Positions 34,299 to 63,301 of a stretch of DNA of 64,000 nt are shown piece after piece. The stretch is taken from positions 1,131,921 to 1,195,920 of the forward strand of contig NC_008942.1 of the NCBI RefSeq assembly GCF_000015765.1. The letters run 5' to 3'. This stretch comes from Methanocorpusculum labreanum Z. GTDB lineage: Archaea > Halobacteriota > Methanomicrobia > Methanomicrobiales > Methanocorpusculaceae. Under the pieces are notes generated by a model, which was given only the letters and a program-made list of their open reading frames with translations, had not been told where the DNA came from and made no database searches. Position 1 is the first letter of the stretch. Every line of letters starts with the position of its first letter. Made by a program: the position numbers and the translations under genes.

Positions 34299-34332
34299 AC
34301 CCCGAAATCAGAAAAATAATAACAAACAAAAA

Positions 34333-34490
34333 GAAAAACCCGCACGCGGGTTTTTCCAACAGCATTTTTCAAGAGAGGGTGCGATTCTGCGTAGGCGATA
34401 AGCCGGAGCAGAGCAGCCGAACGCAAGGAAAATGCGATTCGTGTTTATTCGCGGAGATTCGCGGTTGTTTTTCTTATGCATCCACATCCA
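34333..34490. repeat. Diverged single arm of the palindromic element family
   Basis: This segment matches one arm of the 56286-56774 and 62767-63257 elements: the AAAAACCCGC/GCGGGTTTTT hairpin, then AGCATTTTTCAAGAG, GCGATT-TGCGTAGGCGATAAG, CCGGAGCAGAGC, AAAATGCGATTCG and ATTCGCGGAGATTCGCGG. Similarity continues into a TCCACAT segment. Neither GGACTTACGC terminus is present, so it is a fragment. It lies between the convergent amrS and ABC substrate-binding genes. Confidence 0.8.
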
Positions 34491-56233: not shown

Positions 56234-56495
56234 AAAACGATCGGGGTGCAGAATGCTGCACGGCCCGGTGAACCTTTTTTTAATAGGACTTACGCGGTGT
56301 TGTGATCTTGACCGAGATAAACTGACGTACGAGATGCACTTCGATTTCGTGTACGGCATTAATGTGGACGCAAGAGAAAAACCAACCGCGAATCTCCGCG
56401 AATTAACGCGAATCGCATTTTCCTTACGTTCGGGTGCTCTGCTTCGGCTTATCGCCTACGCAGGAATCGCACCCTCTCTTGAAAAATGCTATCGG

Positions 56496-56517
56496 AAAAA
56501 CCCGCATGCGGGTTTTT
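56496..56517. terminator. Hairpin in palindromic element copy 1 (MATE side)
   Basis: AAAAACCCGC then ATGCGGGTTTTT form a long perfect stem ending in T residues on both strands, which fits a bidirectional terminator. It lies about 260 bp past the MATE stop. Confidence 0.5.
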
Positions 56518-56569
56518 CTGTTGTTTCATTATTTTTTCGATTATATGCATAGAGAAGTTTTACGAAGAG

Positions 56570-56591
56570 AAAAACCGGCACGCCGGTTTTT
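56570..56591. terminator. Hairpin in palindromic element copy 1 (mutL side)
   Basis: AAAAACCGGCACGCCGGTTTTT is a perfect stem with A/T tracts on both sides, matching a similar hairpin in copy 2. Readthrough from mutL (ending at 56805) would meet it. Confidence 0.5.
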
Positions 56592-56804
56592 CCCCAGCAT
56601 TTTTTCCAGACGGCGTGAGATTCCTGCGTAGGCGATCAGCCGGAGCAGAGCACGAAGGCGCAAGAAAAATGCGATTCGCGTTAATTCGCGGAGATTCGCG
56701 GTTAAATAATCTCTTGTCTCCACACCCTGTAATTCCCTTCCCGAATTGGATTGAGGATAACACCTCGTAAATCCTATTTAAATCAATAACGATTTTTGAT
56801 CGGA

Positions 56805-62740: not shown

Positions 62741-62766
62741 TCACCCCAACCTCTTTTTTTCAGATA

Positions 62767-63257
62767 GGACTTATGCAGGGTTGTGATCTTAACCGAGAAA
62801 AAACTGATTTACTTATGACATGCACTTCGATTTCGTGTACGGCATTAGTGCAGACAAAAAGAAAACCAACCGCGAATCTCCGCGAATTAACGCGAATCGC
62901 ATTTTCCTTACGTTCGGGCACTCTGCTTCGGCTTATCGCCTACGCAGGAATCGCGCCCTCACTTGAAAAATGCTATCGGAAAAACCCGCCTGCGGGTTTT
63001 TCTGTTGTTTCATTATATTTCCAATTACACAAAAAAGAGAAGGTAACGAAGAGAAAAACCGGCACGCCGGTTTTTCCCCAGCATTTTTCCAGACGACGTG
63101 CGATTCCTGCGTAGGCGATAAGCCGGAGCAGAGCACGGTGGCGCAAGAAAAATGCGATTCGCGTTAATTCGCGGAGATTCGCGGTCAAATAATCTCTTGT
63201 GTCCATACCCAGTAATACTCTTCCCTAATTGAAGAGGGATTAACACCGCGTAAGTCC
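62767..63257. mobile_element. Palindromic MITE-like element, copy 2
   Basis: A 491-bp relative of copy 1 by eye, with similar inverted arms, central GC hairpins (AAAAACCCGC/GCGGGTTTTT and AAAAACCGGCACGCCGG) and inverted ends (GGACTTATGCAGGGTT and the reverse of GGACTTACGCGGTGTT) flanked by TA. It lies between the C45 lipoprotein stop (62740) and the convergent tpiA stop (63302). Confidence 0.8.
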
Positions 63258-63301
63258 TATTAAAAAAAAGTATTTGAGCTTATTTGAGTAGTATTCAGGA
63301 A

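What the first reader, a model, noticed from the sequence alone, without database searches (positions are those of the whole stretch)
56286..56774. A 489-bp near-palindromic element with TA-flanked GGACTTACGC ends
The sequence shows inverted ends, TA on both flanks, two internal arms in opposite orientation and no transposase. TA target duplications are typical of IS630/Tc1-mariner elements, so a non-autonomous element moved by a transposase elsewhere in the genome is a fair inference. The internal hairpin pairs are far more structured than in simple MITEs.
Basis: partly seen in the sequence, partly recalled or inferred. Interest (0 to 1): 0.65.

Follow-up and report, generated by a model that had tools for sequence, protein, structure and literature searches.

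The report
Hairpin mobile cassette in a methanogen
The 489-bp palindrome is one of about 47 copies of a transposase-less mobile element with IS701-type ends, in a methane-producing archaeon; related copies carry whole genes, several of them anti-virus defence genes, between their hairpin arms, and in one case that gene was swapped in place between two species.

Summary
In detail: 56286-56774 is a near-palindrome with inverted ends flanked by TA, and the genome holds about 47 related sites. The IS630 reading is wrong. TA is the start of the terminal repeat (TAGGACTTACGCGGTGTT). The target duplication lies outside it and is 5-6 bp: across 23 sites the match peaks at 6 bp (0 of 2000 shuffles), and empty sites exist in sister species. 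No IS630-type DDE domain (PF13358) was found in 25 genomes of the genus. The same ends bound a decayed IS701-type transposase in one sister species and intact IS701-type elements elsewhere in the order.

Inside, each arm starts with a triple 10-bp iteron (CCGCGAAT...CGCGAAT...CGCGAAT). Inverted triple iterons of this kind flank GxxExxY nuclease genes in many bacterial phyla (26 of 33 loci, 0 of 1089 control windows). The window copy lacks a gene. Other copies hold GxxExxY, a PD-Lambda-4-like defence protein, KAP NTPases, DUF4062 or YdjM between the arms. At one orthologous site, flanks and arms are conserved between two species but the enclosed gene differs.

Best reading: an IS701-type MITE or mobile insertion cassette whose core is an exchangeable GxxExxY-type cassette. 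No trans-acting IS701 transposase was found in this genome.

The parts
56284..56776 (+). Whole mobile unit (493 bp, TA included at both ends), non-autonomous, IS701-type ends
   Evidence: Ends and copies; TA belongs to the end, not to the duplication:
56284..56301 (+). Left terminal repeat TAGGACTTACGCGGTGTT
56759..56776 (-). Right terminal repeat TAGGATTTACGAGGTGTT (16 of 18 identical to the left)
56279..56283 (+). Left copy of the target duplication, TTTAA (5 bp; 5 of 6 match if read as 6 bp)
   Evidence: relatives at this spot carry other repeats, so the empty site is only suggestive
56777..56781 (+). Right copy of the target duplication, TTTAA
56363..56486 (+). Left long inverted arm
56601..56724 (-). 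Right long inverted arm (83% complementary to the left)
56384..56413 (+). Left iteron triple AACCGCGAATCTCCGCGAATTAACGCGAAT
   Evidence: of six motif hits in 64 kb, five are in the three family members of the window
56674..56703 (-). Right iteron triple, inverted
56495..56518 (+). Left inner terminator-like hairpin GAAAAACCCGCATGCGGGTTTTTC
56569..56592 (-). Right inner terminator-like hairpin GAAAAACCGGCACGCCGGTTTTTC
56519..56568 (.). Central loop, gene-less here; in other copies a gene lies at this place
62765..63259 (+). Second full copy of the family in the window
34306..34490 (.). Half copy (one arm with inner hairpin)

Best explanation
The window element is a non-autonomous transposable element of IS701 type (a MITE; gene-bearing sisters are mobile insertion cassettes). 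An IS701-like transposase acting in trans recognised the 18-bp ends TAGGACTTACGCGGTGTT and inserted the unit at T-rich gene ends with a 5-6 bp target duplication. Its core is a gene-less version of a palindromic 'GxxExxY cassette': two mirror-image arms, each an iteron triple, a stem and a terminator-like hairpin, meeting in a short loop. In sister copies the loop holds a gene, and the gene can be replaced while arms and flanks stay. Shown: ends, duplication, empty sites, IS701-type relatives with the same ends, gene-bearing copies, one in-place cargo exchange, the wide iteron-GxxExxY association. Inferred: the transposase acted in trans; exchange went through recombination in the near-identical arms; the GxxExxY nuclease (Cas4 / lambda-exonuclease-like fold) helps exchange or mobility; the inner hairpins insulate cargo transcription.
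For: Same ends at about 47 sites. Duplication of 6 bp peaks over 23 sites. Empty sites in sister species. Same end pair around a decayed DDE transposase in G017. Intact relatives with ends TAGGA[CG]TTACGC, 1.08-1.15 kb, over the IS701_2 cut-off (355-402 bits vs 250), perfect 5-bp duplications in 9 of 12 elements. Gene-bearing copies. Empty sites of gene-bearing copies. Cargo exchange at one orthologous site. Iteron triples around GxxExxY, 26 of 33 vs 0 of 1089.
Against: No IS701-type transposase was found in the own genome and only a decayed one in one of 25 genus genomes. IS relatives duplicate 5 bp, the MITE family mostly 6 bp, and published IS701 members 4 bp (PMC2266710). Many gene-bearing copies have lost one or both outer ends. 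Arms of one element are not more alike than arms of different elements (p = 0.92), so selection for pairing is not shown. Most gene-less copies could be dead.
Confidence: 0.7

Rival explanations
1. The inner cassette is a mobile or exchange unit in its own right: the GxxExxY PD-(D/E)XK nuclease binds the inverted iteron triples and drives cassette excision, insertion or exchange. The IS701-type ends are a later shell in this genus, and gene-less cores such as the one in the window can be acted on in trans. This is partly compatible with the best explanation.
For: Inverted iteron triples flank 26 of 33 GxxExxY loci of many phyla, 0 of 1089 controls. Cassettes in unrelated places align as DNA only between the iterons, e.g. 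97.5% over 444 bp for L116/L117. Genus genomes without IS701-type ends still have arms around GxxExxY. Own genome has five GxxExxY genes. Fold near Cas4 and lambda exonuclease.
Against: No target duplication or insertion chemistry was found for the bare cassette. GxxExxY is absent from several gene-bearing copies. In the genus most family members have, or had, the outer IS701-type ends. No functional data.
Confidence: 0.3
2. A MITE of IS630/Tc1-mariner type with TA duplication.
For: TA on both flanks.
Against: Duplication lies outside the TA and is 5-6 bp; no DDE_3 domain in 25 genus genomes; ends match IS701-type elements.
Confidence: 0.02
3. A fixed structural repeat (terminator, RNA gene or chromosome-structure element), not a mobile element.
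For: Copies sit at gene 3' ends next to T-runs; the inner hairpins look like terminators; folding is very strong.
Against: Empty sites and target duplications show insertion. No Rfam family at gathering threshold. No within-element co-variation of the arms. Core sequence varies widely under the same ends.
Confidence: 0.05

Closest known systems
IS701 family (NCBIfam NF049921 transpos_IS701_2) and MITEs derived from it
   Same: Ends TAGGA[CG]TTACGC, short duplication outside the ends, relatives with a DDE transposase over the IS701_2 cut-off
   Different: No transposase in the element; element about 0.5 kb; palindromic core with iterons; duplication 5-6 bp where published IS701 members have 4 bp and 1.4-1.55 kb length (PMC2266710)
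Mobile insertion cassettes (e.g. qnrD and qnrS2 cassettes, PMC3913671, PMC5444012; abstracts seen only)
   Same: Passenger genes between IS-type ends without a transposase (gene-bearing sisters)
   Different: Genes lie between long mirror-image arms, and at one site the gene was exchanged in place
GxxExxY family (TIGR04256 / PF13366 PDDEXK_3)
   Same: The arms of the window element are homologous to the arms around GxxExxY genes of the genus
   Different: The window copy has no gene; I know of no description of GxxExxY genes as a mobile cassette
23S rRNA intervening sequences with four-helix-bundle protein (recalled; Coxiella IVS, PMC4990558, abstract seen)
   Same: Long inverted arms that can fold, with a gene or nothing in the loop
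   Different: No sequence relation tested or claimed
Foldback elements of eukaryotes (from memory)
   Same: Long inverted repeats that can enclose unrelated cargo
   Different: Analogy only; no homology tested

Membership tests
IS630/Tc1-mariner MITE | TA target duplication | tested here: not met
   Empty sites and flank statistics:
IS630/Tc1-mariner MITE | IS630-type transposase (PF13358) with the same ends in genome or genus | tested here: not met
   0 of 25 genomes, controls positive:
IS701-type MITE | Terminal repeats shared with IS701-type elements | tested here: met
   TAGGA[CG]TTACGC in relic and intact relatives:
IS701-type MITE | Transposase of the family with those ends | tested here: met
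   Relic in G017 and intact genes in the order, NF049921 355-402 bits:
IS701-type MITE | 4-bp target duplication (published for IS701) | tested here: not met
   5-6 bp here, 5 bp in the relatives. Hence 'IS701-type', not canonical IS701
IS701-type MITE | Transposase available in the same genome | tested here: not met
   No hit with the IS701-type query; other families not searched one by one
MITE (general) | Short, no transposase, many copies, terminal inverted repeats, target duplication | tested here: met
Mobile insertion cassette (for gene-bearing sisters) | Passenger gene between the two ends, no transposase, site empty in relatives | tested here: met
   L046, 2.78 kb end to end, empty in four species: (ends degenerate)
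GxxExxY cassette (proposed here) | Inverted iteron triples at both ends | tested here: met
   Window 56384-56413 and 56674-56703; other phyla:
GxxExxY cassette (proposed here) | GxxExxY gene inside | tested here: not met
   None in the window copy; present in L056, L068, L244 with homologous arms:
GxxExxY cassette (proposed here) | GxxExxY protein acts on the iterons | not testable with these tools
   Needs binding and cleavage assays

The most novel reading that the evidence does not exclude
The inner arms belong to an undescribed class of mobile gene cassette, found in bacteria of many phyla and in archaea: inverted triple iterons of about 10-bp period around a Cas4-like GxxExxY nuclease. 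In Methanocorpusculum it became a platform whose palindromic arms hold interchangeable genes, often anti-viral defence genes, replaced in place while arms and flanks stay.
Probability: 0.45. Interest if true: 0.85.

Novelty: new variant of a known kind. Interest (0 to 1): 0.62.

Why it matters
If the cassette reading is right, it explains a large group of unexplained repeats (CACGGA / CGCGAAT arrays) around GxxExxY genes in many phyla, and shows a way in which a small archaeal genome could keep a rotating set of defence genes at fixed sites. It makes a direct test possible: does the GxxExxY nuclease act on its iterons, and do the arms mediate exchange? For the window itself, it corrects the family and the target duplication.

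Tried and rejected
IS630 reading: rejected by the duplication and by the absence of DDE_3. RNA gene: no Rfam match in the window except two tRNAs. Hairpin kept by selection: within-element arm identity is not higher than between elements (p = 0.92). Autonomous copy in the own genome: end pairs there enclose at most about 0.8 kb with no transposase, apart from the gene-bearing copies, and the IS701-type query gave no hit; other transposase families were not searched one by one. Clean empty site for the window copy itself: relatives carry other repeats at that spot, so it is only suggestive. Defence enrichment: not claimed as a statistic; among 45 background proteins of the window ten PADLOC models each matched one protein at 1e-20, mostly generic ATPase or desulfurase models, and the cargo sample is small.

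Full report
Observation. 56286-56774 starts GGACTTACGC and ends with the near-inverse, with TA on both sides. Inside are two long inverted arms (124 nt, 83% complementary) and two inner hairpin arms; the single-strand fold is 17.8 standard deviations below shuffles. The window holds a second full copy (62765-63259) and a half copy (34306-34490). The genome (1,804,962 bp, one contig) holds about 47 sites. The genus is Methanocorpusculum: sister genome G003 has a contig of 86,429 bp that matches, in length and in the position of its GxxExxY gene (494-925), the record titled Methanocorpusculum sp. UBA424.

Ends and target. In 23 copies with both ends, flanks were compared at every duplication length. 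Only 6 bp outside the TA stands out clearly (match 0.746, shuffled 0.523, 0 of 2000 shuffles; five perfect against 0.57 expected); 5 and 7 bp show a weaker signal, 2-4 bp none. Sister species give empty sites: CCTGAA, CTTAAA, and TTTCAG, TTCTTT and TTAAAA with one or two changes. So TA is the first two bases of the repeat. The window copy itself has TTTAA on both sides (5 bp). Insertions sit next to T-runs at gene ends.

Which transposase. PF13358 (IS630) is absent from 25 genomes of the genus, with positive controls. One sister genome (G017) has the same end pair 1.1 kb apart with a decayed DDE transposase between. Searching the order with that protein gives 42 of 232 genomes. Intact relatives are 1.08-1.15 kb, begin TAGGA[CG]TTACGC, carry about 330-aa transposases over the IS701_2 cut-off, and perfect 5-bp duplications are seen in 9 of the 12 elements examined, the relic included. 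The own genome has no hit, so the family looks orphaned there. De Palmenaer and co-workers give 4 bp and 1.4-1.55 kb for IS701 (PMC2266710), so this is an IS701-type branch, not the canonical form.

Gene-bearing copies. In several copies the loop holds a gene instead of about 50 bp: YdjM (L031), DUF4062 (L046), a 1278-aa protein matching PD-Lambda-4_A (L050), GxxExxY (L056, L068, L244); in sister species KAP NTPases of type PDC-S20 (L181, L182) and, less cleanly flanked (left arm complete, right arm a remnant), DrmD-like plus TmtA-like genes (L185). The DUF4062 copy runs end to end over 2.78 kb and its site is empty in four sister species; the KAP site of G012 is empty in G003; the L244 site appears empty in three species.

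Cargo exchange in place. Own locus L031 and the G016 locus L182 are the same site. Homology runs at 95% from the far left flank through the left arm and stops at the end of the inner hairpin; it resumes at the start of the right arm and continues at 90% through the right flank. Between lie unrelated genes, YdjM in one and a KAP NTPase in the other. KAP proteins of L181 and L182 are only 44.5% identical while their right arms are 96% identical as DNA, which fits repeated cargo exchange between near-identical arms. The mechanism is inferred.

The iteron layer. Each arm begins with CCGCGAAT...CGCGAAT...CGCGAAT. GxxExxY loci found in other genomes were tested with a fixed motif rule: 26 of 33 have an inverted triple on both sides, against 0 of 1089 control windows in the same loci. 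The motif rule was written after seeing the first matches (20 of 34 loci with inverted repeats, 0 of 34 controls), so the two tests are not independent. The letters differ between genomes (CACGGA, CACAGAT, CGCAGAT, CACCGAT, CACGAAT) but usually agree between the two ends of one locus. Cassettes from unrelated places and phyla align as DNA only between the iterons; some pairs of loci are orthologous and align further. In the genus, long inverted arms flank most GxxExxY genes, also in genomes without the IS701-type ends. The protein has an invariant PD-(D/E)XK set with QxxxY and a confident model (pLDDT 88.7) nearest to Cas4 SSO0001 and lambda exonuclease.

Limits. No experiment supports mobility today. 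The GxxExxY mechanism is a hypothesis. Arms do not co-vary within elements, so the palindrome need not be functional in gene-less copies. Genus genomes are partly incomplete, and searches score a limited number of candidates per genome. The paper library is partial: a few papers name GxxExxY or its Pfam family. I read only one passage, in PMC8934634, and nothing I saw describes it as a mobile cassette; absence from this library is not proof of novelty.

Verdict. The window element is an IS701-type MITE with a gene-less GxxExxY-type palindromic core: a new variant of a known kind. The wider cassette is the part worth following.

Noticed in passing
L091 about 800-1310; L093 1056-1125: The 3' end of mutL (next to the window element) is repeated in tandem with a spacer in two sister species, G020 (three extra copies) and G014 (one).
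   Followed up: no
L050, L043, L032, L092, L044, L045, L053: Another repeat family of the genus (GGGGTGCGGGGCCGCGACTCCGGCGCGGAG...) lies nested inside or beside several members.
   Followed up: no
L270, L272, L274, L275, L276: A second class of GxxExxY genes, many copies per genome in G002, G007, G010 and G018, has a conserved leader (GGGGCACAGGCGTTTACCCGCGAGGAGATAA...) and no clear inverted arms.
   Followed up: partly
L056 site and its counterparts L312, L313, L315: The spot that holds the GxxExxY cassette in the own genome holds other genes, without arms, in sister species: a variable site.
   Followed up: partly
L042, L058, L062, L063, L064: Elements of about 0.6 kb with the same ends have a different palindromic core with only two iterons per arm; the core appears exchangeable as a whole.
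   Followed up: partly
L184 8936-14562; L187 674-2897: AAA_21 plus RloB-like genes and an OLD-type ATPase (AAA_15 with TOPRIM) lie near or beside half arms, further defence-like neighbours.
   Followed up: partly
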